NCBI RefSeq assembly: GCF_001904745.1
Contig: NZ_MRCD01000097.1
Coordinates: forward strand, 1 to 33,754
Source: Calothrix sp. HK-06
GTDB lineage: Bacteria; Cyanobacteriota; Cyanobacteriia; Cyanobacteriales; Nostocaceae
Direction of reading: 5' to 3'
DNA length: 33,754 nucleotides
Part shown: in pieces, positions 9,087 to 32,138 of the stretch
How the letters are laid out: each line of letters begins with the position of its first letter
Position numbering within the stretch: position 1 is the first letter of the stretch
Made by a program: the position numbers and the translations under genes
The notes under the pieces: model-generated
What the model was told of the DNA's origin: nothing
The model's database searches: none
The model's input: only the letters and a program-made list of their open reading frames with translations

Positions 9087-9482
9087 ATGGAAAGGCATCG
9101 AATTATGGTTATTGGTAGCAATGTCACTACTGTGCAGCGTGTCAGTAGTTACTGCCTGAAAAAAAATTTAGAAGTGCTTCCCTACTATGGTACTCCCAAA
9201 GTTGATGATATAAATCTGTTTGCCCCTCATGCGTTGGTTCTATGTCTACCCATGCCTGACGACTTTCAATGCCACATACCTATGCCCTACATTTTGTGGC
9301 CAGAACAGGTAATCAATGAGGGGCTAGTTACTACCCAAACAGAAGAATTGTATGTTCGTTTGCAAAAAGCCCTCCAGACTTTAAATCAACCCTTCGCGTA
9401 CAGCCATAGCTGCTGCCTGGACGCGATCATCAACGCTGAGTTTGTTGAGAATCATACGCACATAGGACTTGACTGTTCCTAG
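9087..9482 (+). CDS. Hypothetical protein convergent with and overlapping the response regulator
   Basis: 131 aa. The first 97 or so residues look protein-like: RIMVIGSNVTTVQRVSSYCL, KKNLEVLPYYGTPKVDDI, APHALVLCLPMPDD. This is a beta-alpha pattern that faintly recalls a receiver-like or Rossmann-like fold. The last 34 codons (from about 9381) are antisense to the response regulator gene and probably not under selection as protein. A decayed paralogue of the first part lies at the same place in block B (29774-29897), so the element was part of the duplicated unit. Function unknown. It may be a small regulator of the adjacent two-component system, but nothing in the sequence proves it. Confidence 0.4.
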   Translation: MERHRIMVIGSNVTTVQRVSSYCLKKNLEVLPYYGTPKVDDINLFAPHALVLCLPMPDDFQCHIPMPYILWPEQVINEGLVTTQTEELYVRLQKALQTLNQPFAYSHSCCLDAIINAEFVENHTHIGLDCS

Positions 9483-10067
9483 TGAAAGGTAAAGTTGGTT
9501 AGCAATCTCCTGGTTTGAATTTCCTTTGGCAATAAGTTTCAGAATTTCGCGCTCACGATTACTAAGAATTGGTTGTTGAATTTCAGATTCAGAAACTTCA
9601 GCAGTAAGGGCGCCGAATTTCAACATCCGAGCTACTTTTTGGGCTATTTGAGGGTCTAAATAAGCACCACCAGTAAGTATCAATTGAATCACAGCAACGA
9701 GTTGTTCCCATTCGATGGTCTTAAGACAGTAACCATCTGCACCCGCTGCGAGCATCCCCATTACCTGGGTATCATTGTCAAACGCACTTAAAGCTAGAAT
9801 ACGAGTCGTAAGGTGATTGGCTGGTTGCTGGCTTTTGATCTGCTGCGTGGCTGTGATTCCATCCATGACTGGCATATCAATGTCCATTAAAACAACATCG
9901 GGTTCAAGTTGAGTTGTTAATTCGATAGCCTCGGCGCCGTCACAGGCCTCTCCAACCACAGTAAAGCCAGGTTCAAGGCTAAATTGACCTTTCATACCTC
10001 GGCGAATCAAAGCGTGGTCATCGACTAATAAAATCCGCACTGTTTTCTTTTCGTTATGTAATAGCAT
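9381..10067 (-). CDS. NarL/FixJ-family response regulator (block A)
   Basis: 228 aa. The N-terminal receiver has the acidic pair D16/D17 (LLVDDHAL), phospho-Asp D62 (VVLMDIDMPVMDG), Thr/Ser at ALSAF and the conserved Lys in CLKTIE. The C-terminal LuxR/GerE helix-turn-helix covers about 169-219 (LSNREREILKLIAKGNSNQE, then LGTVKSYVRMILNKL). It is expected to bind DNA as a dimer once phosphorylated. It follows the CHASE3 kinase by 11 nt in the same direction, so that kinase is the probable partner. Its near-identical paralogue is at 29890-30567. The target is unknown; the neighbouring EPS locus is a reasonable candidate (inference). The 3' end overlaps the convergent hypothetical ORF. Confidence 0.93.
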   Translation of the reverse strand: MLLHNEKKTVRILLVDDHALIRRGMKGQFSLEPGFTVVGEACDGAEAIELTTQLEPDVVLMDIDMPVMDGITATQQIKSQQPANHLTTRILALSAFDNDTQVMGMLAAGADGYCLKTIEWEQLVAVIQLILTGGAYLDPQIAQKVARMLKFGALTAEVSESEIQQPILSNREREILKLIAKGNSNQEIANQLYLSLGTVKSYVRMILNKLSVDDRVQAAAMAVREGLI

Positions 10068-10078
10068 CGTTCCTTTTC

Positions 10079-11662
10079 CTACATTCCGTTTGCATGATGG
10101 AACCTAGCCTTATGTGTATTAACCGGGAGAATAAACCAGAAGGTACTACCCTCTCCAAGGGAACTGTCAACACCGATAGTGCCGGAGTGAGCCGAAATTA
10201 TTTGACGACACAAGTACAGCCCAAGTCCAGCTCTTCCACGCCGACCTCTTCCTTGAATGAAGCGGTGGAAGAGCTGTTCCAAGTCTGCGGGCGCAATTCC
10301 TGAACCGTTATCGCGCACGCAAACCCGCACTTGTTTTTCCCCAAAAATCGTTGTTTCAAGGGAAATTTCTTTATTCGGTTGACTCGCTCGCACAGCGTTA
10401 TCAAGCAGGTTTTGTACAACCCGTTGAATTTCTAACTCATCACCGTAGACGGTTGGCAATGATTGAGATATTTTATAAGTGAATGCTAACTCACACTTTG
10501 AAGAAGCTTTGACCTGGGCAATCGCTTTAACAAAAATCTTTTTCCAATTAAGGGGGTCATAGCTAAGGTGGGCACCACTCCCCTGTTCATAACGCCCAAC
10601 ATCCAAGAGGACGGACACAAGCTTGAGGATATCCTCGTTAGCTTGGCGGTACTCTTCAAATATTTCCCTCCAAGTGTCATTAACTGGGCCAAAAGCTCCT
10701 TTGATCATGCTATCCAAGGTAGTACGAGTAGCAAGCAGTGGAGTACGCAAGTCGTGGGAAAGCGCGCAGATCATATCCTCAAGCTGTTGGTTACGCACTT
10801 CAATCGATTCAGTACGGTGGCGAGTCTCGTCTGCCATTGCATTGAGAACTTTAGCCAGTTGACCAATTTCGTCTCTTGATGTATAGTTAAGGTGGACGAA
10901 CATTTGACCTTTGCGCCAAAGTTTGCCTATCTCCGTCAATTGCTGCAAAGGAACTTCAACTCGTCGATGTAAACGAGTCAGGTTAAAAGCTATTGCTAAT
11001 ACACTCGTTACTGTACTGAAGATATTTGTAACTGTATTTATACGGTTTAATTGAGATAAAGTGTTTCTGCGTTCACGCCAAAGTATCTTCTCACGGTCAA
11101 TTAAGACGTTAATTTCACTACGTAAACAACTGAGTAAAGGGCTTTCTTGATGGCTCGTGCTGCCGACATGAAAAGAATTTTCGTTCTGGTTCAACTTGCT
11201 TTCCCAGTAATCATGTAAATATTCAATCCTATAGAGTCCCTCAAGTTGAGTAGGGTTGCTCTTGACCAAGTTGTATAGCTTATTAAGGCTGTCGCGAAAG
11301 GCAAAGCTACTCTCAGTATAACTTTCTAAGGCGAACTGCTTCTGACTATAATCTTCTAAGATGCCTCTTTGCTCATCGATCACAGCATTGAACAAATGTT
11401 CTCCTTCATGCTGTACTACTAAAGTATTGGTAAACCAATTATATGCTTGGTGATTGAGGTGTTCTATCCAGATGTTCAACCCTTGCTGCCCCAATATCAA
11501 TAACATCAGTACCAAAAAGCTAGTATATAGAGGCGCGAATAGATGACTTTTTAAGATAGATTGACTAATCGAACGCAACAAACCAATAACTGACACTATT
11601 TTACGAATTCGTAAGCTTACGTAAGCTATATTAAATAGTCGAGTAGCAACTGGCATGTTCAT
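10079..11662 (-). CDS. CHASE3-HAMP sensor histidine kinase (block A)
   Basis: 527 aa membrane-bound kinase. TM1 is about residues 41-60 and TM2 about 210-228. The periplasmic segment between them has a CHASE3-like helical pattern with the family's 'DEQRG' turn at 96-100. HAMP covers about 229-285. HisKA carries H303 in ALSHDLRTPLL. HATPase_c shows NLLDNAVRAS, DNGSGIAP, a GRAGLGLYLC G2 box and GEGSTFWF. CHASE3 domains sense unknown extracytoplasmic cues. The gene is upstream of and almost touching the NarL regulator gene, which forms a standard kinase-regulator pair. The paralogue at 30567-32138 keeps the kinase core but has a diverged sensor segment. Confidence 0.92.
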   Translation of the reverse strand: MNMPVATRLFNIAYVSLRIRKIVSVIGLLRSISQSILKSHLFAPLYTSFLVLMLLILGQQGLNIWIEHLNHQAYNWFTNTLVVQHEGEHLFNAVIDEQRGILEDYSQKQFALESYTESSFAFRDSLNKLYNLVKSNPTQLEGLYRIEYLHDYWESKLNQNENSFHVGSTSHQESPLLSCLRSEINVLIDREKILWRERRNTLSQLNRINTVTNIFSTVTSVLAIAFNLTRLHRRVEVPLQQLTEIGKLWRKGQMFVHLNYTSRDEIGQLAKVLNAMADETRHRTESIEVRNQQLEDMICALSHDLRTPLLATRTTLDSMIKGAFGPVNDTWREIFEEYRQANEDILKLVSVLLDVGRYEQGSGAHLSYDPLNWKKIFVKAIAQVKASSKCELAFTYKISQSLPTVYGDELEIQRVVQNLLDNAVRASQPNKEISLETTIFGEKQVRVCVRDNGSGIAPADLEQLFHRFIQGRGRRGRAGLGLYLCRQIISAHSGTIGVDSSLGEGSTFWFILPVNTHKARFHHANGM

Positions 11663-15291: not shown

Positions 15292-16710
15292 ATGTCTAGT
15301 AGTCAATTTAATCCAGCTCATCTAGATTTACGTGAGCCTGTATTTGCCAGAATTAGGAAGGGTTTATGGTGGCTAAGATTAGTAACACTCATCTTAGTGG
15401 ACTATATTCTTTTATTATTTGCTTGGATGTTAGCTGGGAATCATGCTTCTTTAGATTTTCCTGGATATACACAGAGCAATTCTTTACCAATAATAGCTAT
15501 TGCTATTCAAATAGCAGTACTAGCTCTGCAAGGTTCTTATCAATCAGGAAAAAAGCGTTATGACTATTTGAACATTATCAAAACGCTTACTTTCGCACAT
15601 GGATTAATAGTGTTTGTTGGTTTTTTATCTCAACCAATCGTTGATGTTACTCGTCAAACATTAATTTTGTCTTGGTTAATGAGCATATCTTTGGTTTGCG
15701 CTGGAAGAGCGACAGTGAATTTTTCTCTTCAATATCTTCGCAATCAAAAAATCCTAGGTTATAATCGTGTTTTTATTATTTGCGAACATGAGAATTATGA
15801 ACAATGCGTTGCCACTATTAAGAAAGAGAGTCGTTACATTATAAGTGGTACGGCAAGTCCTAAAGCATTAGATAGATATTATCGTCAAGAAACCTTGAAT
15901 AAGCTGAATGAATTAGATGTAACAGAAGTATTTGTATCTTGGGATGCAATCAAAAATAGAATGTTCTTGCGCTGGCTATTTCAATCATCCGGGATAACAT
16001 TACATATTTTACCAATAGAGTTAAAACCAATCTACAGAGACATAGAGTTCGAGAAGATAGGAGGAATGCCCTGCCTGAGTTTTGATTGTCCGGTAATTAC
16101 AGGAAAAGATTTTTGGATAAAGCGAATTATTGATTTTAGTGCTGCTGCTATATTTGTCGCTTTAACCTTCCCTATTTACATAGCGATTGCGATCGCAATC
16201 AAACTCGATTCTCCTGGTCCAGTATTTTTTAAGCAAACCCGTTTAGGTTTACGTGGCAAAGCATTTAAGGTCTGGAAGTTCCGTACCATGAGGACTGATG
16301 CAGAAAAATTCCAAAAAGAATTGGAAGCTTTAAATGAAACAAAAGATGGTGTTATTTTTAAAATCAAAGATGACCCTCGCATTACGCGCATTGGCAAATT
16401 TCTTCGTCGTTACAGCTTAGATGAATTACCACAACTGTTTAACGTTCTGTTTGGAGAAATGAGCTTAGTCGGTCCCCGCCCTTTGCCCATGAGAGATGTA
16501 GATAAGTTCTCCGAACACCATTTTATTCGACAAGAAGTTTTACCTGGTGTTACAGGTCTTTGGCAAGTTTCCGGTCGCTCTAATATTTTGGATTTTGAAC
16601 AAGTAATCAAGCTTGACCTTAGCTATATCGAAAACTGGTCGCTTTATTTAGATTTTGAAATCTTACTTAAAACAGTTCAGGTAGTTTTGAAAAAAGAAGG
16701 TGCTTACTAG
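15292..16710 (+). CDS. Undecaprenyl-phosphate sugar-1-phosphate transferase (WbaP/EpsE-type)
   Basis: 472 aa inner-membrane enzyme that starts the EPS repeat unit by moving a sugar-1-phosphate from a nucleotide sugar to the polyprenyl-phosphate carrier. The N-terminal part has about four hydrophobic helices and a soluble Rossmann-like insert. A further helix precedes the catalytic PF02397 domain (about 270-472). Visible motifs are KRIIDFSAAAIF, SPGPVFFKQTRLGLRGKAFK, VWKFRTMRTDAE, DDPRITRIGKFLRRYSLDEL, PQLFNVLFGEMSLVGPRP and PGVTGLWQVSGRS. The Asp-Glu and Pro-Arg-Pro active-site features are intact. It is the first plus-strand EPS gene, preceded by cassette copy 1. The specific sugar cannot be read from sequence. 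Confidence 0.93.
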   Translation: MSSSQFNPAHLDLREPVFARIRKGLWWLRLVTLILVDYILLLFAWMLAGNHASLDFPGYTQSNSLPIIAIAIQIAVLALQGSYQSGKKRYDYLNIIKTLTFAHGLIVFVGFLSQPIVDVTRQTLILSWLMSISLVCAGRATVNFSLQYLRNQKILGYNRVFIICEHENYEQCVATIKKESRYIISGTASPKALDRYYRQETLNKLNELDVTEVFVSWDAIKNRMFLRWLFQSSGITLHILPIELKPIYRDIEFEKIGGMPCLSFDCPVITGKDFWIKRIIDFSAAAIFVALTFPIYIAIAIAIKLDSPGPVFFKQTRLGLRGKAFKVWKFRTMRTDAEKFQKELEALNETKDGVIFKIKDDPRITRIGKFLRRYSLDELPQLFNVLFGEMSLVGPRPLPMRDVDKFSEHHFIRQEVLPGVTGLWQVSGRSNILDFEQVIKLDLSYIENWSLYLDFEILLKTVQVVLKKEGAY

Positions 16711-17415: not shown

Positions 17416-20145
17416 ATGGTCATTTATACAGATTCTACATATATTACTAATACTAAATCAGGCAAAAATCTTAATATTCATCAGTGGTTTGAAGCTCAAG
17501 TAAAAGAAAAACCAGACGCTGTTGCAGTAATTTTTGAAGATAAACAGTTGACATATAGAGAGCTAAATCACCGTGCTAATCAACTAGCACACTATCTGCA
17601 ATCGCTAGGGGTTAAACCAGAGAGCCTGGTTGGTATATGCATGGAGCGATCGCTAGAGATTGTAGTGGGATTGTTAGCTATTCTCAAGGCTGGTGGCGCC
17701 TATGTTCCTCTAGACCCCGCCTATCCGAAGGAGCGCATTGCTTTTATCGCCGAAGAAACCCAAGTAGCAATACTCCTAACTCAAAAACATCTGGTTAACG
17801 AACTTCCTCAGTTAAACTCACGGCTGGTTTGTATTGATACAGAGTGGCAGACTATTGCTAGAGAAAGTGAAAAAAATCCAGTTAGTGAGGTAACACCAGA
17901 AACTCTTGCCTATGTAATTTATACTTCTGGTTCTACTGGTAAGCCAAAAGGGGTGGAAATTCCTCACGGAAATATTAGTCACTATGTTCAGGCTATGAGC
18001 AAGGCATTGCAAATAGATAGCAAAGATATTTATCTGCACACAGCATCCTTCTCATTTTCCTCATCAGTCAGGCAGCTAATGATAGCGCTTTCTCAAGGAG
18101 CTACTGTTGTCATCGCAACTGCTGAACGGATCGGCAAACCATTGGCACTGTTTGAACTTATTAAACAGCATCATATTACCATCATCGACCTTGTGCCATC
18201 TTACTGGCGAAGCTGTACCGAGGTGCTAGCAAATCTGGAAACCGACCAAAGAAACAATCTTTTAGATAATCAACTCCGGTTAATTTTAGCTGCTAGTGAA
18301 CCATTGTTGTCTGATATCCCCAAAAACTGGCGGCTTGGGTTTAAGCAGGATGTACGCTTTATTAATATGTATGGTCAAACTGAGACCACTGGCATTATTG
18401 CTGTCTATCCGATTCCAGACAAATATAAGGACGAAGTAACAATTGTCCCAATCGGCAAAGCGATTGCTAACACCCAGATTTATATATTAGATGACGATCT
18501 GCGCCCCGTAGCTGTTGGTGAGATTGGGGAAATGTACGTAAGTGGTACTAGCCTTACCCGTGGCTATCTTAAGCGTCCAGATTTGACAGAGAAAATATTT
18601 ATTCCCAATCCTTTTAGCGATCGCCCAGGCGCCCACCTCTACAAAACAGGAGATTTAGCTCGTTATCTGCCTGATGGCAATATAGCATATGTGGGTCGCG
18701 TTGATTATCAAGTAAAGATTAGAGGCAAGCGTGTTGAACTAGGTGAAATTGAATCAATTATTAGCCTTTATCCTGGTATTAAACAAACTGTGGTCATGGG
18801 TAAAGAAGATGTATCAGGTAATACGCGCCTGATTGCTTATATCGTTCCTAAAGCAACCTCAAATGAGATTAACCAAAAAATTTCTACTAGAGAACTACGA
18901 AACTACCTCACAGAGAAGTTGCCTGAATACATGATACCTTCTACCTTTATGACGCTCGCAGCTTTTCCCCTCACGGCAACGGGGAAAATAGACCGCCGTG
19001 CCTTACCAGCACCAGAGCAGGTTAGGCAAGAGAGAGAAGAAACGTATGTGGCGCCTCGAGATGAGTTGGAACTTCAGCTAACGAAAATTTGGGAAAAAGT
19101 TTTAGGTGTTCAACCTATCGGTATAAGAGACAACTTCTTTGAATTAGGAGGTAACTCCCTTATAAGTATACACATGTTAACGGAAATTAAAAAAGTTTTT
19201 AGCAAGTTGTTATCTCCATCTATCTTTGTAGATACACAAACAATTGAGCATTTAGCTAACCTTCTACGTCAGCATGATCATGCTACGCCTTCGCGTTCGC
19301 TAATCCGGCTTCAACAAGGTAACCCTAAAAAGCTTCCTCTTTTCTGCATTCATGCTATTTCGGGCAACGTTCTATTTTATCAAAATTTAATATACTATCT
19401 AGAGCCGGATCAGCCTTGCTACGGGTTACAAGCTTTAGGATTTGATGGAAGACAGGCTCCTTTGACTTCGATTAAAAAAATGGCATCTCGCTATATAGAA
19501 GAAATACAAGCGATTCAACCCGAAGGCCCCTATTTTTTATGTGGTCACTCTTTTGGAGGTATTGTAGCTTTTGAAATTGCCCAACAATTGAATATTAAAG
19601 GTCATAAAATTGCACTCTTAGCTCTATTAGACGCTGTTAACCCGCATGTTTTTAAAGCGCCTCCAATTTTATTAAATTTTCATAACTATCATACATTTAT
19701 AACCTGGTTTAATTTTCACATAAATAATTTTTTTAATTTAGGCATTAAAAAACAGCTAATCTACCTGCGAGAAAGGTTTAAATGGCACTTAAGAGTTGGC
19801 AAGCTAAGTATTTTTTATAGACTTTACCTCCGCTTTTGGCAGCAAAATTTTCCATTATTGAACCTTTTAAATATTGAAAGAGCTAATAATAAAGCAATGA
19901 AAAACTATGTTCCTCAAATCTTTCCTGGTCAATTAAGTCTCTTTACCTCTAGTCAGGTTTACCTAGGGTTTAACCATGATGATAAATTAGGTTGGAGTGA
20001 ATTAATCACTAATAGAATTGACCTTTATAACATTTCTGGTTCACATACAGAAATGATGCAAGAGCCAAACGTTCAATCACTAGCTGAGAAGTTTCAATAT
20101 TGCTTGGAACGGTCACAAAAAGATGCTACTTTATTGAAGGATTGA
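17416..20145 (+). CDS. Single-module NRPS-like synthetase (A-PCP-TE)
   Basis: 909 aa from ATG 17416, with AAAGGTG 5 nt upstream; the TTG at 17398 is less likely. Adenylation domain (about 20-510): YTSGSTGKPKG (A3), NMYGQTETTG (A5), YKTGDLARY (A7), GRVDYQVKIRGKRVELGEIE (A8), TATGKIDR (A10 Lys). The A4 region reads ASFSFSSSVRQL, so GrsA D235 aligns with Ser, 236 with Ser and 239 with Arg. The substrate is thus unlikely to be a normal alpha-amino acid. The carrier protein has LGGNSL with Ppant Ser581. The thioesterase (about 630-909) has GHSFGG (nucleophile S712), LLDAVN (Asp) and SGSHTEM (His). There is no condensation domain. A-PCP-TE enzymes include the aryl-keto-acid dimerising synthetases of fungi and Ralstonia. 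Here it sits in an EPS operon, 7 nt before the flippase gene, so it might make or attach a glycan substituent (inference). Confidence 0.9.
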   Translation: MVIYTDSTYITNTKSGKNLNIHQWFEAQVKEKPDAVAVIFEDKQLTYRELNHRANQLAHYLQSLGVKPESLVGICMERSLEIVVGLLAILKAGGAYVPLDPAYPKERIAFIAEETQVAILLTQKHLVNELPQLNSRLVCIDTEWQTIARESEKNPVSEVTPETLAYVIYTSGSTGKPKGVEIPHGNISHYVQAMSKALQIDSKDIYLHTASFSFSSSVRQLMIALSQGATVVIATAERIGKPLALFELIKQHHITIIDLVPSYWRSCTEVLANLETDQRNNLLDNQLRLILAASEPLLSDIPKNWRLGFKQDVRFINMYGQTETTGIIAVYPIPDKYKDEVTIVPIGKAIANTQIYILDDDLRPVAVGEIGEMYVSGTSLTRGYLKRPDLTEKIFIPNPFSDRPGAHLYKTGDLARYLPDGNIAYVGRVDYQVKIRGKRVELGEIESIISLYPGIKQTVVMGKEDVSGNTRLIAYIVPKATSNEINQKISTRELRNYLTEKLPEYMIPSTFMTLAAFPLTATGKIDRRALPAPEQVRQEREETYVAPRDELELQLTKIWEKVLGVQPIGIRDNFFELGGNSLISIHMLTEIKKVFSKLLSPSIFVDTQTIEHLANLLRQHDHATPSRSLIRLQQGNPKKLPLFCIHAISGNVLFYQNLIYYLEPDQPCYGLQALGFDGRQAPLTSIKKMASRYIEEIQAIQPEGPYFLCGHSFGGIVAFEIAQQLNIKGHKIALLALLDAVNPHVFKAPPILLNFHNYHTFITWFNFHINNFFNLGIKKQLIYLRERFKWHLRVGKLSIFYRLYLRFWQQNFPLLNLLNIERANNKAMKNYVPQIFPGQLSLFTSSQVYLGFNHDDKLGWSELITNRIDLYNISGSHTEMMQEPNVQSLAEKFQYCLERSQKDATLLKD

Positions 20146-20152
20146 GTTAATT

Positions 20153-21592
20153 ATGATATCGGGACGCAGAAAAATTATAAGCAACTCTATTTCAATACTA
20201 AGTAATAGATTAGTACAAAGTATTACAACTTTTGTTTTAGTAGCATCTATTGCTCGTTTTCTGGGTCCCTATAATTTGGGACAATATACTCTTGCATTCA
20301 GCTACTATTTTCTTTTTATGACCCTAGTATCACAAGGGTTTAAAACACTATTTACAAGAGAACTATCATGTAATCCACACCAAACATCAGTATATTTAGT
20401 AAGTGGCTCTCTATTGCAGCTAATTTCTAGCATCATCGGTTATGCGGCAATGGCGTTGGTAGTGTTTATATTACCCTATAATGCCGATACATCGGTAGTT
20501 TGCTATGTCTTAGGATTAATGATTATTCCATTTTCCATTTCTAATATTACTGAAGCAATTTTTCAAGCTCAAGAAAAAATGCATCTAATTGCTATCAGCA
20601 CAGTGCCAATCTATATTTTGCGTACAATCATCATGATTTGGGCAATGAAGCTCAAATATGGCATAAATTTTTTATGTTATGTTTTGGTAATTTCTGAAGC
20701 ATTAATCCTGTTTATTGAATGGATTTTAATATTACAGTTTGTCAAACCTAAATGGCAGATTGACTGGAATTTTATTCGGAAAACTTTGAAGTCTTCTCTA
20801 ACATTTTTGGCGATTGAGGGTATCGCTGTTCTAAAAAGCAGAATGTTAGTGATAATTTTATCTTTATTATCGGGTGAAGTTATTGTTGGCTTGTATGGTT
20901 CAGTAGTTCAATTGATACAACCTTTTGAAATTATTGCCTATAGCCTTGTAATGGCTACATTTCCTAGTATGTCCAAGGCAGTCACATTAGGGAAAGAAAA
21001 GCAGCGTTATATAGCTGAGAGTGTTGTTGAGATATTACAGGGTGTCGCATTACCGTTAATTATCGGGCTGTTCTTTATTGGAGGTGATATACTAACTTTA
21101 ATCTATGGTAGCCCTAAATTTGCTCAGGCTGCTGTACCACTTAACGTGGTTGCCTTGGGATTAGTAGTAGCTTCATTTACACGTCCTTTAGGATATTTGC
21201 TAGTAGCTAATGGCTTTGAGCGTGTTAATCTGATTGAAGTGACTAGCACTAGCGTTTTAACAGGCTTTATTGGTGTACCACTAATCTCGAAATATGACTT
21301 GATGGGGGCTGCACTAACTGTACTTATAGTTCAAATTGCAACCTCTAGTCAATATATATATGCAGTTTATAATCATCTATTTTCTTTACATATATGGCGG
21401 ATTCTAGCTCGTCCAATAATAATTAGTATTTTTATGCTGGTTGTATTTTTAATCTTAAAAATATTTAATCTAAATATTCTTGTTGAGATGAGTGTTGCCA
21501 CTCTCGCTTACACTTTATTCGCAGGTATCATGGCTACTTATGCTATTGGTGGTTTTAAAGTTATTTTGGCAAAAATATTGCCTGATAAATAA
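20153..21592 (+). CDS. Wzx-type lipid-linked oligosaccharide flippase
   Basis: 479 aa polytopic membrane protein with about 12-14 hydrophobic helices. The N-terminus (SNSISILSNRLVQSITTFVL, then ARFLGPYNLGQYTLAFSYYF) is typical of the MATE/MOP polysaccharide transporter family (PF01943/PF13440). It would turn the polyprenyl-linked repeat unit across the inner membrane for Wzy polymerisation. It begins 7 nt after the NRPS-like stop and is probably cotranscribed with it. Confidence 0.88.
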   Translation: MISGRRKIISNSISILSNRLVQSITTFVLVASIARFLGPYNLGQYTLAFSYYFLFMTLVSQGFKTLFTRELSCNPHQTSVYLVSGSLLQLISSIIGYAAMALVVFILPYNADTSVVCYVLGLMIIPFSISNITEAIFQAQEKMHLIAISTVPIYILRTIIMIWAMKLKYGINFLCYVLVISEALILFIEWILILQFVKPKWQIDWNFIRKTLKSSLTFLAIEGIAVLKSRMLVIILSLLSGEVIVGLYGSVVQLIQPFEIIAYSLVMATFPSMSKAVTLGKEKQRYIAESVVEILQGVALPLIIGLFFIGGDILTLIYGSPKFAQAAVPLNVVALGLVVASFTRPLGYLLVANGFERVNLIEVTSTSVLTGFIGVPLISKYDLMGAALTVLIVQIATSSQYIYAVYNHLFSLHIWRILARPIIISIFMLVVFLILKIFNLNILVEMSVATLAYTLFAGIMATYAIGGFKVILAKILPDK

Positions 21593-22797: not shown

Positions 22798-24078
22798 ATG
22801 AATACCATGAAAAACATTTTAAAATTATTAGAATATGGATTTACAGTTTTATCTTTGATGCTTTATACAGGAGGACCTCTAACTGTAATTGTTTCTGGAG
22901 GAGTTAATGAAGGAGAGGCTGAATTTTATCAAGGAAGCGATAATACTGTAATTAAGTTAGTTTTTTTACTTATCTATTTCATTACATTTTTGCTACTGGT
23001 TGCTCGATGGAAAAAAGTTATTTATACCCTAAGTAAAGATAAGTATATATTAGTAATGGTATGTATTGCTGTAATTTCAATTTTGTGGTCTTATGCACCA
23101 GAAGCAACAATAACTCGTTCCCTAGGTATATGTGGAACAACTTCTTTTGGTCTTTACTTAGCTACCCGTTATTCTTTGAAAGAACAGATAAGTTTATTAG
23201 GCTGGACGTTTGCAACAGTAATATTATTAAGTTTGCTCTTTGCTGTGGCATTACCCAAATATGGAATTATGGGAGGCATTCATACAGGAGCGTTGCGAGG
23301 AATATACAACCATAAAAACGTTTTAGGCAAAATGATGGTTATCAGTACAACAATATTTATACTGCAGGCTCTTAATAATACTAAAAATCGCTTACTAATA
23401 TATTTGGGCTTAAGCTTCTCGGTTATGCTTCTATTGCTCTCAAGGTCTTCTTCAGCAATGGTAAACTTGCCGATTATTATTGGTCTAATTATAATATTTC
23501 ACACTTGGCGATGGCGCTATGAGGTGATGATTCCTGCCTTAATCGCCATATTAACCCTAATTGGCAGCTTTTATCTTTGGTTTAATGAGAACTCAGATGT
23601 TCTATTTGGTGCTGTTGGTAAAGATGCAACTCTCACTGGTCGCACAGAGATATGGGCTGTAGTATGGAATATGATTTGGAAAAGACCTTGGCTAGGTTAT
23701 GGTTACGGTGCATTTTGGTTCGGAGGCGATTTATCTTATGAGGCTTGGTATGCTGCTGGTTGGCGAGCTCCTAACTCACACAATGGGATGTTAGATCTTT
23801 GGGTGAATGTCGGATTATTAGGAGTATTTATATTTGTATTTAGTTTTTTAAAAACTTTAGTCAATGCCTTTATTTGTTTACGATATAGAAATAAATCTCA
23901 GTGGTTCTGGCCATTAATATTTATTGTATATCTCATTTTATCTAACTTAACTGAGAGTGCATTAATGTTGCAAAATGATATTTTTTGGGTACTTTATGTA
24001 GCTGTAGCTTACTCAGTTTTAATACCGACTGAAGAGTCAATAAATACTGACAAAGTGATACATTTTTCAAAAGGTTGA
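22798..24078 (+). CDS. O-antigen ligase/Wzy-like polysaccharide polymerase
   Basis: 426 aa with about 10-12 membrane helices and a large periplasmic loop. The motif region DATLTGRTEIWAVVWNMIWK and RPWLGYGYGAFW, followed by NSHNGMLDLWVNVGLLGV, is the PF04932 (Wzy_C/O-antigen ligase) signature; NHKNVLGKMM is also typical. In a Wzx/Wzy locus it most likely polymerises repeat units on the periplasmic face. Its position between two GT4 genes fits. Confidence 0.88.
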   Translation: MNTMKNILKLLEYGFTVLSLMLYTGGPLTVIVSGGVNEGEAEFYQGSDNTVIKLVFLLIYFITFLLLVARWKKVIYTLSKDKYILVMVCIAVISILWSYAPEATITRSLGICGTTSFGLYLATRYSLKEQISLLGWTFATVILLSLLFAVALPKYGIMGGIHTGALRGIYNHKNVLGKMMVISTTIFILQALNNTKNRLLIYLGLSFSVMLLLLSRSSSAMVNLPIIIGLIIIFHTWRWRYEVMIPALIAILTLIGSFYLWFNENSDVLFGAVGKDATLTGRTEIWAVVWNMIWKRPWLGYGYGAFWFGGDLSYEAWYAAGWRAPNSHNGMLDLWVNVGLLGVFIFVFSFLKTLVNAFICLRYRNKSQWFWPLIFIVYLILSNLTESALMLQNDIFWVLYVAVAYSVLIPTEESINTDKVIHFSKG

Positions 24079-25283: not shown

Positions 25284-25378
25284 TTAAATATTTTTCCAAA
25301 TTTCTACAAGTTGCTGCTGTAAAGAAAGATAATTAATTACATGCAAGCATCTGATTTATATTGCCCAAGAAATCATCT

Positions 25379-26173
25379 ATGTACAAACCTATGAAGATAA
25401 ATATTGCTGGTATCCAAATTGATAAATATAGCTTTGATGAAGTTGTCGAACGTATTATGAACACAGCGCTTTCAAACGATGCACCAGAATATGTAGTTAC
25501 CCCAAATGCACAGCACGTTCTGACACTCCAAAAAGATGCTCGTTTTCGTGAAATCTATCGCAAGGCTTTTTTAGTAGTACCAGATGGCGTTTCACTGCTA
25601 TGGGCAGCTAAGTTTTTGCAGACACCATTACAAGGTCGAGTTAATGGCACGGATTTGTTTGAAAGCCTTTGTTCCATTGCGGCAGAAAAAGGACTAAAAA
25701 TATTTTTACTGGGTGGTCGTCCGGGTGCCGCTGATAAAGCAGCAGAAATTTTACAGGCTCGGTATCCAGATTTGAACATTGTTGGTACTTATTGCCCGCC
25801 TTACGGATTTGAGTCAAACCCAGTAGAACTAGCACTCATCAACGCTAAAATTAAAGCAGCAGCACCACATATTCTCTTTGTCGGACTCGGCGCCCCTAAA
25901 CAGGAGAATTGGATATATAATAATTATCAACAGCTAGGGGTGCCGATTTCAATTGGTATTGGGGTTAGTTTTGAGCTAGTCGCAGGTATGGTTAAAAGAG
26001 CACCAGTTTGGATGCAGAAAAGAGGATTAGAGTGGTTATTTCGCTTGATAGTTGAGCCTTATCGCTTGTGGCAACGTTATATAATTGGCAATCCCCTATT
26101 CATTTGGTTGATTATAAAACAGAAACTAGGGCTATCAAAGAAGTTTCAATCTAGAATTAAACTTAATGTATAA
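25379..26173 (+). CDS. WecG/TagA/CpsF-family glycosyltransferase
   Basis: 264 aa from ATG 25379; ATG 25391 (MKINIAG) is an equally plausible start and TTG 25361 unlikely. Typical GT26 pattern: PNAQHVLTL, VPDGVSLLWAAKFL with the putative catalytic Asp, RVNGTDLFE, LGGRPGAADKAAEIL, LFVGLGAPKQENWI. Enzymes of this family transfer N-acetylmannosaminuronic acid, ManNAc or glucose to lipid-linked acceptors, usually as a second sugar. A C-terminal hydrophobic/basic tail may tether it to the membrane. Its stop overlaps the following glycosidase by 8 nt, so the two are translationally coupled. Confidence 0.93.
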   Translation: MYKPMKINIAGIQIDKYSFDEVVERIMNTALSNDAPEYVVTPNAQHVLTLQKDARFREIYRKAFLVVPDGVSLLWAAKFLQTPLQGRVNGTDLFESLCSIAAEKGLKIFLLGGRPGAADKAAEILQARYPDLNIVGTYCPPYGFESNPVELALINAKIKAAAPHILFVGLGAPKQENWIYNNYQQLGVPISIGIGVSFELVAGMVKRAPVWMQKRGLEWLFRLIVEPYRLWQRYIIGNPLFIWLIIKQKLGLSKKFQSRIKLNV

Positions 26174-27347
26174 AGATTCATTCTTAACTAGACGACGTGC
26201 TGTTAAATTAGGTTTTGGAATGCTTGCAGGTGCTGTAGGTGCTGTGACAACTTCCAAAGCAATTGATCTTAATAACCAAATTCAAGCACTTGATAATCCC
26301 AACAGAAAGTTTCCTGTAAATGGAAAACTTTCTTTAAAAGAGCGTGCCACTGCTAAAGGATTGATTTATGGAGCAGCTATTCAATACTCTCAACTGTCAT
26401 TGGATAGGGAAATTGCAACCAATGTAAAGCGCGAGTGTGGAATGCTTATCCCAGAATGGGAACTCAAGTGGTTTGTGGGAAAGCAACCCTTACGTCCTAG
26501 TCCATATACTTTTGACTTCCGTGCAGCAGATTGGATGGCTAATTTTGCTAAAACTCATGGTCTGCTTTTACGAGGACATACTCTAGTTTGGCATGAGTCT
26601 TTACCACCCTGGTTTGAGAAGACGGTTAATAACCAAAACGCAAAACGATTCTTGGAAGAACATATTAAAACCGTTGTACAGCATTATGCCGGAAAAATTC
26701 ACTCTTGGGATGTTGTAAATGAGGCTATTAATCTGAGTGATGGTAGGTCTGATGGGTTACGAAAAACTCCATGGTTAAAGTTTTTAGGCTCAGATTATAT
26801 CGAATTGGCATTTCGTCTTGCCGCTGAAGCTGATCCACAGGCATTATTGGTTTACAATGATTTCGGCTTAGATTATGATACCTCTAAAGATGAAGCTAAG
26901 AGAAATGCTGTTTTGAAGTTGTTAGAGCGTTTAAAGACTAAGGGTACGCCGATTCATGCGCTTGGTATACAAGCTCACTTAACAGCAAATGAGGCTAAAT
27001 TTAGCCCAAGTAAGCTCCGGCAATTTCTTAGAGATGTTGCTAGTTTAGGCTTAAAAATTTTGATTACAGAAATGGATGTAGTGGATAAAAAGCTACCTGT
27101 AGACATTAAAGTACGCGATCGCATTGTTGCTGGAGTCTATGAAGATTATCTCTCAGTTGTCCTGGATGAGCGAGCAGTCATTGCAGTTTTAACCTGGGGA
27201 CTAAGCGATCGCTATACATGGCTCTCCCACTTTCAGCCCCGGCGAGATCGTGCAGCGGTGCGCCCTTTACCGCTAGATGCCAATTTTAGGCGTAAATTAG
27301 CATGGAACGCAATCGCTCGTGCTTTTGATCAAGCTCCGAGGCGCTAA
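26166..27347 (+). CDS. GH10-family glycosidase (endo-xylanase-like) with Tat signal
   Basis: 393 aa. The N-terminus has TRRRAVKLGFGMLAGAVGAV, a twin-arginine-type signal, so the enzyme is exported folded. The catalytic domain follows from about residue 55. GHTLVWH, then WDVVNEA with acid/base E186, and ITEMDVV with nucleophile E302 match GH10. Classical GH10 enzymes cut beta-1,4-xylan. Here, with an EPS locus and a start that overlaps the WecG-type gene (26166-26173), it more likely trims, releases or transglycosylates the cell's own polysaccharide (inference). Length and motifs are complete. Confidence 0.9.
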   Translation: MYKDSFLTRRRAVKLGFGMLAGAVGAVTTSKAIDLNNQIQALDNPNRKFPVNGKLSLKERATAKGLIYGAAIQYSQLSLDREIATNVKRECGMLIPEWELKWFVGKQPLRPSPYTFDFRAADWMANFAKTHGLLLRGHTLVWHESLPPWFEKTVNNQNAKRFLEEHIKTVVQHYAGKIHSWDVVNEAINLSDGRSDGLRKTPWLKFLGSDYIELAFRLAAEADPQALLVYNDFGLDYDTSKDEAKRNAVLKLLERLKTKGTPIHALGIQAHLTANEAKFSPSKLRQFLRDVASLGLKILITEMDVVDKKLPVDIKVRDRIVAGVYEDYLSVVLDERAVIAVLTWGLSDRYTWLSHFQPRRDRAAVRPLPLDANFRRKLAWNAIARAFDQAPRR

Positions 27348-29773: not shown

Positions 29774-29897
29774 ATGGTGATTAGTAGAAATGCAACCGAC
29801 GATCGTGGAATTTGTTGTTAGCTATAGCCCTGAAAAAGAATTTAGAAGTGTTTTTTTACTACGGTATTCCTGTAGTTGAAGATATAACTTTAAATTA
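29774..29897 (+). pseudogene. Decayed paralogue of the 9087 hypothetical gene (block B)
   Basis: ATGGTGATTAGTAGAAATGC begins like the block A copy (IMVIGSN versus IMVISRN) but has several stops. Further on, LKKNLEVFFYYGIPVVEDIT aligns with LKKNLEVLPYYGTPKVDDIN, then LN and a stop. Comparison with block A shows about 165 bp missing between GATATAA and CTTTAAAT. The remnant cannot encode the protein. Confidence 0.6.
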
Positions 29898-30567
29898 ATC
29901 CTTCGCGTACAGCAACAGCTGCTGCCTGGACGCGATCATCAACGCTAAGTTTGTTGAGAACCATACGCACATAGGACTTGATGGTTCCTAGTGAGAGGTA
30001 AAGCTGATTGGCAATCTCTTGGTTTGAGTATCCTTTGGCAATAAGTTTAATAATCTCGCGCTCACGATTACTAAGATTTGGTTGTTGGAGACTTTCAGAT
30101 TTAGAAACTTCAGTGTTCTCAATACTTGGCTTGAGCATTTTGGCAACTTTTTTGGCAATTAGAGGATCTAAATAAGCACCACCAGTAAGTATTAATTGAA
30201 TCACCGCAACGAGTTGTTCCCATTCGATGGTCTTAAGACAGTAACCGTCTGCACCAGCTGCGAGCATCCCCGTCACCTGGGTATCATCGTCAAACGCACT
30301 CAAGGCTAAAACACGAGTGGTAACGCGCTCGCTTTTTATGCGCTGCGTGGCTGTGATCCCATCCATGACTGGCATATCAATGTCCATCAAAACGACATCT
30401 GGCTCGAATTGAGTTGTTAATTCAATAGCCTCGGCGCCGTCAGAAGCTTCTCCAACCACAGTAAAGCCAGGTTCAAGGGTAAATTGACCTTTCATACCTA
30501 GACGCATCAAAGCGTGGTCATCGGCTAATAGAATCCGCACTGTTTTCTGTTCGTCATTTACTGACAT
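29890..30567 (-). CDS. NarL/FixJ-family response regulator (block B)
   Basis: 225 aa, nearly the same sequence as the block A regulator. The acidic pair D16/D17 (LLADDHAL), phospho-Asp D62 (MDIDMPVMDG), CLKTIE lysine and the LuxR helix-turn-helix (LSNREREIIKLIAKGYSNQE, LGTIKSYVRMVLNKL) are all intact. Differences concentrate in the linker (residues about 144-166). Its ATG overlaps the stop of the CHASE3 kinase by one base (TAATG), so the two are translationally coupled. With recognition helices almost identical to those of block A, both regulators probably bind the same sites. Confidence 0.93.
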   Translation of the reverse strand: MSVNDEQKTVRILLADDHALMRLGMKGQFTLEPGFTVVGEASDGAEAIELTTQFEPDVVLMDIDMPVMDGITATQRIKSERVTTRVLALSAFDDDTQVTGMLAAGADGYCLKTIEWEQLVAVIQLILTGGAYLDPLIAKKVAKMLKPSIENTEVSKSESLQQPNLSNREREIIKLIAKGYSNQEIANQLYLSLGTIKSYVRMVLNKLSVDDRVQAAAVAVREGLI

Positions 30568-32138
30568 TATTCCTTCTCCTGTATCTCCTTTACGTCATGA
30601 AACTTAGCCTTATCTGTATTAAGCGGGAGGGTAAACCAAAAGGTGCTACCTTCTCCAAGGGAACTGTCAACACCAATAGTGCCGGAGTGAGCCGAAATTA
30701 TTTGACGACACAAGTACAGCCCAAGCCCTGCTTTTCCATGCTTACGTCTTCCCATGCGGAAGCGGTGAAAAAGCTGTTCCAAGTCTTGCGTCGCAATTCC
30801 TAAACCGTTATCACGCACGCTAACTTTTACTTGTTCCCCAAAAGGGGCTGCCTCAAGGAAAATGGATGATAATGGCTCACTCACTCGCACAGCATTACCA
30901 AGCAGGTTTTGCATAACCCGTTGAATTTCTAACTCATCACCGTAGACGGTCGGCAGTGATTGAGAAATTTTATATGTGAAGCTTAACTCACACTTTGAAG
31001 AAGCCTTGATCTGAGCAATTACTTTGCCAAAAATCTTTTCCCAATTAAGGGGATCGTAGTTGAGGTGCGCGCCACCACTAGCTTCATAGCGCCCAATATT
31101 CAACAGAACTTCTACAAGCAGTAGAATATCCTCGTTACTTTGACGATACTCTTGTAATACTTCTTTCCAAGTCTCCGAAACCTCACCAAAAGCCCCCTTA
31201 ATCATGCCATCTAAGGTATTGCGCGCGGCAAGCAGTGGAGCTCGTAGGTCGTGGGAAAGAGCGCATATCATATCTTCAAGCTGTTGGTTTTGCACCTCAA
31301 TACTTTTCTGCCGATTTTGAGTCTCGTCTGTTATGGCGTTGAGAACTCTAGCCAACTGAGCAATTTCGTCTTCATACGAATAACCAAACTTGACGGACAT
31401 CTCACCTTGGCGCCAAAGCTTGGCTATTTCGGTCAATTCGTGCAAAGGTACTTGAAATCGTCGATGCAAAAACTGAACGTTCAAACCTACTGCTACTAAA
31501 ATTACTACTGCACTAAAGATGTTTATGGTAGTGTTTATATTGCTTAATTGATATAATTTATTTCTGCGTTTGTCCAATAGCATCTCCTCACTCTCTATCA
31601 AGATGCCAATCTCACGCCGTAACTCACTAAAGGGCGCATCTTTCGTTAAGTCATAGCTGCTTGTGCTAACATCATCAGAACTTGTCTTGTAATTCAACTT
31701 GCTTCGCCATTGGTCATATAGATAGTTAATACGATTAAGTTGCTTAAGTTGGGCAGGGTTATTTTGTAGTAAATTATATAAATTATTAAAGCTGTTACAA
31801 AAATTAAAATTACTCTCATTCTCTTGACATGGACTGAATTGGTATTGATTGTAATATTTGATACAAGCTTCTTCCTGATCTATTAAACTGTTGAGTAAAT
31901 GTTTTTCTTCACGCTCTACTACTAAAGTGTGAGTTATCGCTACAGCGACTTGGTAATTCAAATGTTCTGTCCAAAGGTTTAATGTTTGCTGCCCCAATAT
32001 TAATAGCACCAGCACTAAAAAGGTAATGTATAAGGACGCAAACAAATTACTTCTTTGCCATAATTTCGCTAGTGATCGCACCAAATTTTTAACAAACACT
32101 ATTCCAAAAATCCGTAAGCTTATATTACTATCAATCAA
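30567..32138 (-). CDS. HAMP sensor histidine kinase with diverged CHASE3-like sensor (block B)
   Basis: 523 aa. TM1 is about 31-50, the periplasmic helical segment 51-205, TM2 about 206-224, then HAMP, HisKA with H296 (ALSHDLRAPLL), and HATPase_c (NLLGNAVRVS, DNGLGIAT, GKAGLGLYLC, GEGSTFWF). The kinase core is close to the block A kinase, but the sensor segment differs strongly, and the CHASE3 'DEQRG' turn is replaced by DQEEACIKYY. It overlaps the regulator start by one base. It looks like a functional kinase retuned to another signal. Confidence 0.92.
   Translation of the reverse strand: MIDSNISLRIFGIVFVKNLVRSLAKLWQRSNLFASLYITFLVLVLLILGQQTLNLWTEHLNYQVAVAITHTLVVEREEKHLLNSLIDQEEACIKYYNQYQFSPCQENESNFNFCNSFNNLYNLLQNNPAQLKQLNRINYLYDQWRSKLNYKTSSDDVSTSSYDLTKDAPFSELRREIGILIESEEMLLDKRRNKLYQLSNINTTINIFSAVVILVAVGLNVQFLHRRFQVPLHELTEIAKLWRQGEMSVKFGYSYEDEIAQLARVLNAITDETQNRQKSIEVQNQQLEDMICALSHDLRAPLLAARNTLDGMIKGAFGEVSETWKEVLQEYRQSNEDILLLVEVLLNIGRYEASGGAHLNYDPLNWEKIFGKVIAQIKASSKCELSFTYKISQSLPTVYGDELEIQRVMQNLLGNAVRVSEPLSSIFLEAAPFGEQVKVSVRDNGLGIATQDLEQLFHRFRMGRRKHGKAGLGLYLCRQIISAHSGTIGVDSSLGEGSTFWFTLPLNTDKAKFHDVKEIQEKE

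What the first reader, a model, noticed from the sequence alone, without database searches (positions are those of the whole stretch)
17416..20145. A-PCP-TE synthetase inside an EPS operon with no Asp235 in its substrate pocket
The adenylation domain lacks the Asp that binds the alpha-amino group; the aligned positions 235/236/239 are Ser/Ser/Arg. There is no condensation domain, but a complete PCP and thioesterase are present. This architecture is known for enzymes that dimerise aryl keto acids (such as atromentin, TdiA and RalA-type synthetases) and for some loading enzymes. An Arg in the pocket could pair with a second acidic group. Its place between sugar-chain genes and 7 nt before the flippase suggests an acyl or other non-sugar group added to the glycan, or a signal molecule made with it. 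I know of no described example of this combination, but I could not search.
Basis: partly seen in the sequence, partly recalled or inferred. Interest (0 to 1): 0.8.

Follow-up and report, generated by a model that had tools for sequence, protein, structure and literature searches.

The report
Peptide-synthetase module inside a slime-sugar operon
In this cyanobacterium the genes for a surface slime sugar include a small peptide-synthetase enzyme with an unusual substrate pocket, and related bacteria carry different peptide synthetases in the same spot, which suggests that such enzymes decorate the slime with amino acids or similar groups.

Summary
An intact A-PCP-TE gene (17416-20145) lies between the initiating sugar transferase and Wzx of a Wzx/Wzy exopolysaccharide (EPS) operon. 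Its A domain has Ser/Ser/Arg/Asp at 235/236/239/278 and Gln for the A5 proline.

The pocket marks one clade of cyanobacterial A domains. In seven sampled NRPS loci it follows a TauD hydroxylase plus interface domain, a slot that elsewhere holds aspartate codes. The substrate is probably aspartate or a related C4 diacid with a nucleophilic group. The keto-acid-dimer comparison is not supported.

The broader finding is the slot. Syntenic EPS loci in other genera carry other NRPSs there: half-C-A-PCP-TE (codes DILG, DIED), a three-module NRPS, and a TE remnant. A domain and PCP-TE were swapped independently: window vs L011, A 80%, TE 40%; L011 vs L233, A 41%, TE 64%. A TE clade tracks EPS loci (10 of the 14 closest TE hits). 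Stand-alone enzymes with this pocket occur outside glycan loci about as often (5 glycan, 6 not, 1 unknown).

Best reading: it loads an acidic acyl group that the TE passes to the lipid-linked repeat unit. Transfer and substrate are inferred, not shown.

The parts
17416..20145 (+). A-PCP-TE one-module NRPS-like gene (909 aa)
   Evidence: SD-like AAAGGTG before ATG 17416
17476..19020 (+). adenylation domain (residues 21-535), motifs A1, A2, A4-A10 matched
   Evidence: Pfam PF00501/PF13193; motifs (the A3 regex failed only because it was too narrow, YTSGSTGKPKG is in the translation)
18055..18081 (+). A4 pocket segment F-S-S-S-V-R-Q-L-M (Ser235, Ser236, Arg239 in GrsA numbering)
   Evidence: alignment to LgrA; pattern hit
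18187..18189 (+). Asp258 (GrsA 278), invariant in 20 of 20 clade members
18376..18378 (+). Gln321 in place of the A5 proline (LgrA Pro483), invariant in 20 of 20
19078..19266 (+). peptidyl carrier protein, Ser581 in LGGNSL
   Evidence: Pfam PF00550; motif
19291..20142 (+). thioesterase domain, GHSFGG serine 712, Asp and His aligned
   Evidence: Pfam PF00975; triad alignment
15292..16710 (+). initiating sugar-phosphate transferase (EPS_sugtrans)
   Evidence: TIGR03025 above cut-off, PF02397
16795..17205 (+). STAS / anti-sigma-factor antagonist
   Evidence: TIGR00377 above cut-off
20153..21592 (+). Wzx-type flippase
   Evidence: PF01943
21664..22770 (+). GT4-type glycosyltransferase
22798..24078 (+). 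Wzy-type polymerase / O-antigen-ligase family
   Evidence: PF04932
24183..25283 (+). glycosyltransferase
25361..26173 (+). WecG/TagA/CpsF glycosyltransferase
   Evidence: TIGR00696 above cut-off
26166..27347 (+). GH10 glycoside hydrolase
   Evidence: PF00331, 293 bits
27468..29657 (+). Wzc-type chain-length regulator / tyrosine autokinase
   Evidence: TIGR01007 above cut-off

Best explanation
The gene is the one-module form of an NRPS component that occupies a conserved slot in a family of cyanobacterial Wzx/Wzy EPS operons. The A domain activates an acidic acyl group, most likely aspartate or an aspartate-like C4 dicarboxylic acid (malate-like, or aspartate held in an unusual way), using Arg239/Asp278 instead of Asp235. 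The PCP holds it as a thioester. The TE then acts as an acyltransferase and passes it to a sugar of the lipid-linked repeat unit before Wzx flips it. In related operons the same slot installs other amino acids or short peptides. Shown: intact domains, the pocket, slot conservation in several loci, independent swapping of A and PCP-TE, and a TE clade that tracks EPS loci. Inferred: the substrate, the transfer to the glycan, and its timing.
For: Slot: L233 and L236 have BacTransf-[half-C-A-PCP-TE]-Wzx-...-WecG-GH10-Wzc, L257 has BacTransf-[3-module NRPS-TE]-Wzx-GT-Wzy, and L231 keeps a 42-aa TE remnant there. Swapping: window vs L011 A 80%, PCP 57%, TE 40%; L011 vs L233/L236 A 41/46%, PCP 76/71%, TE 64/63%; L233 vs L236 A 46%, PCP 83%, TE 77%. 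TE tracks EPS: of the first 14 places in a ranking by similarity to the L011 TE (itself from an EPS locus), 10 lie within 10 kb of Wzx/Wzy/Wzc genes, 2 do not, 2 are on contigs of 5 and 8 kb; label changes on the TE tree 4 against a shuffled mean of 13.8 and minimum of 9 in 1000. Acyl transfer: in L113 the A(SSRD)-PCP is followed by an Acyl_transf_3-like region in place of the TE (27.7 bits, cut-off 31), and L109 has an Acyl_transf_3 gene next door (85 bits). Substrate: TauD-interface-A(SSRD)-PCP in L115, L122 and L138 sits where clusters of the same layout have DLTK..H (canonical Asp) codes (L154, L155); TauD relatives of 60-71% identity stand before DLTK..H, DLTK..E, VSAK and SSRD modules alike; CcsK/CcsL of cyanochelin B make beta-OH-Asp (PMC12628792 section 5 read). 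A 2015 review (PMC4390846, passages seen) lists 'the introduction of peptide moieties' among cyanobacterial EPS modifications.
Against: No biochemistry. The window's own TE is outside the main EPS TE clade. Stand-alone A(SSRD)-PCP-TEs also occur in surroundings without glycan genes (L118-L120, L263, L268, L271). No acyltransferase family was hit among the window proteins scanned (not every window ORF was scanned). Loss of Asp235 plus loss of the A5 proline is also what a keto-acid A domain (StsA) shows (PMC11253843 sections 9-10, passages seen). Of 20 GH10-type EPS loci fetched by rank, only 2 show an NRPS and 1 a remnant, although several were cut by contig ends or the 20-kb limit before the slot.
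Confidence: 0.45

Rival explanations
1. The enzyme makes a free small molecule. It loads an amino acid, a trans-acting enzyme modifies it on the PCP and the TE releases it (as recalled for beta-hydroxy-amino-acid supply in aminocoumarin and glycopeptide pathways), or two residues are joined and released. The EPS operon is only its neighbour.
For: Same-pocket A-PCP-TEs occur without glycan genes around them (L118, L119, L120, L263, L268, L271). TauD hydroxylases matching the SSRD-associated one at E<=1e-10 are encoded in 9 of 12 genomes searched, including G000:C220 of the window's own genome.
Against: Different NRPSs occupy the same slot of syntenic EPS operons and are swapped by domain, which is hard to explain for an unrelated small molecule. 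The TauD search found no match on the window's own contig.
Confidence: 0.27
2. An aryl- or alkyl-keto-acid dimerising enzyme of the atromentin/RalA type.
For: A-PCP-TE architecture, no Asp235, and the A5 proline replaced (Gln321 aligned with LgrA Pro483), as in the keto-acid domain StsA (PMC11253843, passages).
Against: Position 235 is Ser, not hydrophobic, and Arg239/Asp278 are invariant in 20 of 20 clade members (235, 236 and 239 partly by selection through the search pattern). The same A domain is used directly behind a genuine C domain (L121 HHIIFDG) and behind interface domains with TauD, which points to an acceptor nucleophile. The A5 proline is present in only 53 of 74 sampled domains outside the clade, so its loss is not diagnostic.
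Confidence: 0.08
3. The pocket activates the distal carboxyl of an amino diacid (iso-aspartyl or gamma-glutamyl type): Arg239 grips the alpha-carboxylate and Asp278 the alpha-amine.
For: Charge arrangement of the pocket. Arg239 in distal-carboxyl-activating domains (ACV synthetase, Lys2, McyE) is recalled, not tested here. The interface/TauD slot points to aspartate.
Against: VinN-type beta-amino-acid domains keep Asp235 and have a beta13-beta14 loop one residue shorter (PMC11253843 section 8, whole section read). The window shows no gap against LgrA there. The placement beside beta-alanine-type domains in the first tree was not reproduced.
Confidence: 0.2

Closest known systems
AlmE (AlmEFG, glycylation of Vibrio LPS) and DltA (D-alanylation of teichoic acid)
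   Same: An A domain plus carrier protein loads an acyl group that ends up on a cell-surface polymer (PMC11253843, passages).
   Different: There the A domain keeps the alpha-amine Asp (D247 in AlmE, D197 in DltA); separate proteins and a dedicated transferase are recalled. Here A, PCP and TE are one protein in a Wzx/Wzy operon and Asp235 is absent. The window scores 298 bits with TIGR01734 against a cut-off of 560.
Cyanochelin B NRPS (CcsK/CcsL, Leptolyngbya NIES-3755)
   Same: TauD plus interface-A-PCP layout shared with seven sampled loci of the SSRD clade.
   Different: The Ccs modules carry DLTK (Asp) codes and the cluster makes a siderophore. The window enzyme has no interface domain and has a TE.
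A-PCP-TE keto-acid synthetases (atromentin, TdiA, RalA)
   Same: Domain order A-PCP-TE (recalled).
   Different: Genomic context differs, and use behind C and interface domains in relatives argues against a keto acid. Their pockets were not compared by a tool here.
Exosortase-A-associated EPS acyl ligase (TIGR03098)
   Same: An AMP-forming ligase named for an EPS-related system (one search hit).
   Different: 253 bits against a cut-off of 592, so not a member. It is not part of an A-PCP-TE protein (recalled).
PKS-saccharide-NRPS hybrid cluster noted in Gloeocapsopsis UTEX B3054 (PMC6513891)
   Same: Saccharide and NRPS genes in one cyanobacterial cluster (passages seen).
   Different: An antiSMASH label only; slot, pocket and function are not described in the passages seen.

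Membership tests
NRPS A-PCP-TE module | A, carrier and TE domains above Pfam cut-offs with catalytic residues | tested here: met
   AlphaFold model matches 1AMU with TM 0.90 normalised to 1AMU, rmsd 2.3
canonical alpha-amino-acid A domain | Asp at GrsA 235 | tested here: not met
   Ser215 aligned to the LgrA Asp
alpha-keto-acid A domain (StsA type) | Asp235 replaced by a hydrophobic residue | tested here: not met
   Asp235 lost, but to Ser
alpha-keto-acid A domain (StsA type) | A5 proline replaced | tested here: met
   Gln321 aligned with LgrA Pro483; not diagnostic, only 53 of 74 sampled non-clade domains have Pro
beta-amino-acid A domain (VinN type) | Asp235 kept and beta13-beta14 loop one residue shorter | tested here: not met
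   Ser at 235, no gap against LgrA in that stretch; criteria from PMC11253843 section 8
Asp beta-hydroxylation module (interface type) | interface domain before A and TauD upstream | tested here: not met
   window gene starts directly with A, no TauD match on its contig; met for relatives L019, L115, L122, L117, L138, L195 and L196
Dlt/AlmEFG-like glycan aminoacylation | acyl group transferred to a surface glycan | not testable with these tools
   only genomic context and an AT3-like fusion in a relative
Aryl-keto-acid dimerising A-T-TE (atromentin/RalA) | dimer-forming activity on keto acids | not testable with these tools
   no activity data; indirect evidence against from C-domain and interface contexts

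The most novel reading that the evidence does not exclude
Cyanobacteria have a modular 'NRPS slot' in Wzx/Wzy EPS operons. NRPSs of one to several modules, ending in a TE that works as a peptidyl- or acyl-glycan transferase, attach amino acids, peptides or diacids to the lipid-linked repeat unit. A domains and PCP-TE units are exchanged between strains much as glycosyltransferases are, giving serotype-like variation and the genetic origin of the peptide moieties reported in cyanobacterial EPS. At least one relative (L112) puts this under c-di-GMP control through PilZ domains inserted in the A domain.
Probability: 0.4. Interest if true: 0.8.

Novelty: new variant of a known kind. Interest (0 to 1): 0.62.

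Why it matters
If right, NRPSs are a recurrent way to add amino acids, peptides or diacids to Wzy-dependent exopolysaccharides, a function not described in the paper listings and passages seen here. It could explain the peptide moieties mentioned for cyanobacterial EPS, give a genetic handle on EPS charge and metal binding, and turn NRPS genes that might be read as orphan metabolite clusters into glycan genes. It also makes a pocket without Asp235 directly testable, because close relatives sit in siderophore-type assembly lines with predictable products.

Tried and rejected
A. Keto-acid dimer enzyme: weakened (see rivals). B. Sister relation to beta-alanine-type A domains (VDW[VI]; the substrate name of that code is recalled): seen weakly in FastTree, not in IQ-TREE, so dropped; a larger IQ-TREE run timed out. 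C. Idea that the hydroxylase next to SSRD modules is specific for a substrate without an amine: rejected after 62 TauD-module pairs showed the same hydroxylase subgroup next to DLTK Asp and Asn-type codes (the Asn reading, and the His reading of DSAL codes, are recalled). D. AAGK codes in L072 and L194 are misalignments of DLTK and were not used. E. EPS association of the pocket itself: 4 of 21 SSRD loci (any length, window not counted) against 1 of 63 other A-domain loci of at least 12 kb have core EPS genes (Fisher p 0.013), but the sequences are related and stand-alone enzymes split 5 to 6, so I do not claim it. F. Plasmid collection search: 3069 records matched, the 40 listed have at most 42.6% identity over the best places, none near the 65% relatives. 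G. Paper searches for the pocket codes (6 papers, titles unrelated), for PilZ with NRPS A domains (0 papers) and for NRPS with Wzx/Wzy (8 listed; 20 of 65 listed; 14 listed) showed no title or abstract start describing this slot; only open-licence PMC papers were searched, and of these I opened passages of PMC6513891 and PMC4390846 only. Other searches.
Full report
1. Observation. The gene at 17416-20145 (+) is intact and is an A-PCP-TE protein of 909 aa with no condensation domain. It lies 7 nt before Wzx. The operon around it has an initiating sugar transferase, STAS protein, Wzx, two GT4-type transferases, Wzy, WecG, GH10 and Wzc. The pocket, mapped through the LgrA alignment and in script, is S235 S236 R239 D278 I299 A301 M322 G330 I331 K517, and Gln replaces the A5 proline.

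2. The pocket is a family trait. The same code (SSRD, with variation at 299-331) is found in L011, L012, L013, L014 and L019, which came from a similarity search whose patterns did not cover 235-239 or 278. A 27-base degenerate pattern for the A4 segment hit 19 of 388 genomes of the order; of the 20 places, 17 (window included) carry the SSRD code and 3 (L098, L102, L106) gave no A-domain match. A class-wide draw of 388, partly the same genomes, had 5 hits: the window, L102 again, one place not examined (L135), and G581 and G615, new; G581 is SSRD (L138), G615 (L139) has the motif in broken reading frames. Later searches added L195, L196, L263, L268 and L271. In FastTree 20 of 20 SSRD A domains form one clade, and in IQ-TREE on a reduced set 14 of 14 do; what is sister to it is unresolved, since the two trees disagree. 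Asp258, Gln321, Gly326, Trp264, Tyr190, Tyr206 and His208 are invariant in 20 of 20; these were not part of the A4 pattern, whereas Ser215, Ser216, Arg219, Gln220 and Met222 were.

3. What the substrate may be. Seven sampled loci have TauD - interface domain - A(SSRD) - PCP: L019, L115, L122, L117 and L138 and L195 and L196; L115 and L122 are close sister loci (TauD 94%). L014 has the interface domain, and a TauD lies near a contig end of the same genome. The interface domains of these modules lack HHxxxD and are 34-42% identical to the interface of cyanochelin CcsL, against about 23-31% for genuine C domains compared with them. Clusters of the same layout as L115/L122/L138 have DLTK (Asp) in that slot (L154, L155) or VSAK, an Asp-like code with Val at 235 (L153). 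CcsK/CcsL make beta-OH-Asp in a compound solved by NMR (PMC12628792 section 5 read). Stand-alone TauDs 60-71% identical to the L115 one stand before SSRD, VSAK, DLTK..H and DLTK..E modules; the L117 one (55%) is an exception. The simplest inference is an aspartate-like residue with a nucleophile. L121 has a genuine C domain directly before A(SSRD), which also calls for a nucleophile. Whether the residue is Asp bound in an unusual way, Asp activated at the distal carboxyl, or malate-like is open.

4. Variants. L113 has A(SSRD)-PCP followed by a membrane acyltransferase-3-like region instead of a TE (27.7 bits, below the Pfam cut-off of 31, but profile 6-326 of 326 is covered); L114 has the same length and a near-identical A domain but was not scanned. 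L112 has a PilZ insertion in the A domain (two stretches, E 1.8e-20) with one RxxxR and two [DN]xSxxG motifs, in an EPS locus with GH10, WecG, Wzx and Wzy. L110 and L112 have two A-PCP-TEs in tandem, the first of each incomplete. L116 is an A domain alone. L117 lies among glycosyltransferases, with a Wzy-like protein below the Pfam cut-off (26.7 against 31.7).

5. The slot. I searched 195 genomes of the order with the window's GH10 protein (39 have a match) and fetched 20 further loci, the best-ranked one per genome without the window and G115. Several are cut before the slot by contig ends or the 20-kb limit. Two carry an NRPS in the window's slot: L233 (code DILG) and L236 (code DIED), both half-C-A-PCP-TE between BacTransf and Wzx; L231 has a 42-aa TE remnant there. 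Searching with the L011 TE (100 of 388 genomes at E<=1e-55) and fetching 20 stretches showed more: L257 with a three-module NRPS between BacTransf and Wzx; L252, L253, L254 and L255 with C-A-PCP-TE proteins beside Wzy or Wzx in GH10 loci; L256 with the TE end of a cut ORF beside Wzy; L258 and L259 beside Wzx. L252-L256 were also picked because TE and GH10 hits lay close together. In the TE ranking itself 10 of the first 14 places are within 10 kb of Wzx/Wzy/Wzc, 2 are not (L261, L262) and 2 are on contigs of 5 and 8 kb (L110, L263). Places further down the ranking that I fetched (L260, L264, L266, L268-L271) show no such genes.

6. Domain swapping; window vs L011 A 80%, PCP 57%, TE 40%. L011 vs L233: A 41%, PCP 76%, TE 64%. 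L011 vs L236: A 46%, PCP 71%, TE 63%. L233 vs L236 (same genus label): A 46%, PCP 83%, TE 77%. So one PCP-TE chassis carries at least three A-domain codes in the same slot or operon type, and one A domain sits on two TEs. On the TE tree (75 sequences, 15 labelled EPS; L109 and L117 not so labelled) the label changes 4 times against a shuffled minimum of 9; sampling was partly guided by EPS genes, so this is support, not proof. The window's own TE lies outside the main EPS clade.

7. Mechanism. Shown: competent domains, slot conservation, swapping. Inferred: the A domain loads an acidic acyl group, the TE transfers it to the lipid-linked repeat unit, Wzx exports it. A pure hydrolase TE on a one-module protein would waste ATP, so transfer to some acceptor, or release of a modified residue, is likely.

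8. Known or new. AlmE and DltA (PMC11253843, passages) are precedents for carrier-based loading of surface-polymer substituents. A review of cyanobacterial glycans (PMC4390846, passages) mentions peptide moieties in EPS, and the listing counts no 'nonribosomal peptide synthetase' in it. Another paper labels one cluster PKS-saccharide-NRPS (PMC6513891, passages). The listings showed no description of this slot or pocket. I file it as a new variant of a known kind.

Noticed in passing
L112:2392-5766: A(SSRD) domain interrupted by a tandem PilZ insertion, the second copy with RxxxR and NxSxxG motifs, before PCP-TE: a possible c-di-GMP-controlled NRPS-like enzyme in an EPS locus.
   Followed up: partly
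L113:9030-11852 (and probably L114:7704-10526, not scanned): A(SSRD)-PCP followed by a membrane acyltransferase-3-like region (below Pfam cut-off) instead of a thioesterase.
   Followed up: partly
L257:682-11610: Three-module NRPS with TE between the initiating sugar transferase and Wzx.
   Followed up: partly
L231:7044-7169: 42-aa thioesterase remnant in the NRPS slot of a syntenic EPS locus, next to a methyltransferase gene.
   Followed up: partly
L153:6015-14798 and L080:3850-8439: Aspartate-like A domains with Val at position 235 (VSAK, VSTK) behind interface domains of siderophore-type clusters.
   Followed up: partly
window 9381-11662 and 29890-32138: Two gene pairs that look like response regulator plus histidine kinase (regulators judged by eye) flank the EPS operon and match the same pair in L011, so they look like paralogues.
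   Followed up: no
L118, L119, L120, L271: A(SSRD)-PCP-TE near the same creatininase-like gene (named by eye, no family search) in two families, outside any glycan locus.
   Followed up: partly
L269:934-3573 and L270:9149-11800: Stand-alone A-PCP-TE with another code lacking Asp235 (SIFH).
   Followed up: no
L013:1807-4617: A-PCP-TE with code MGRH beside a C-A(SSRD)-PCP-TE, a glycosyltransferase-like gene between them.
   Followed up: no
L156:2415-7710 (G000:C220): The window's own genome has a TauD plus interface-A module with a DAWQ code, a cyanochelin-like layout with a different residue.
   Followed up: no
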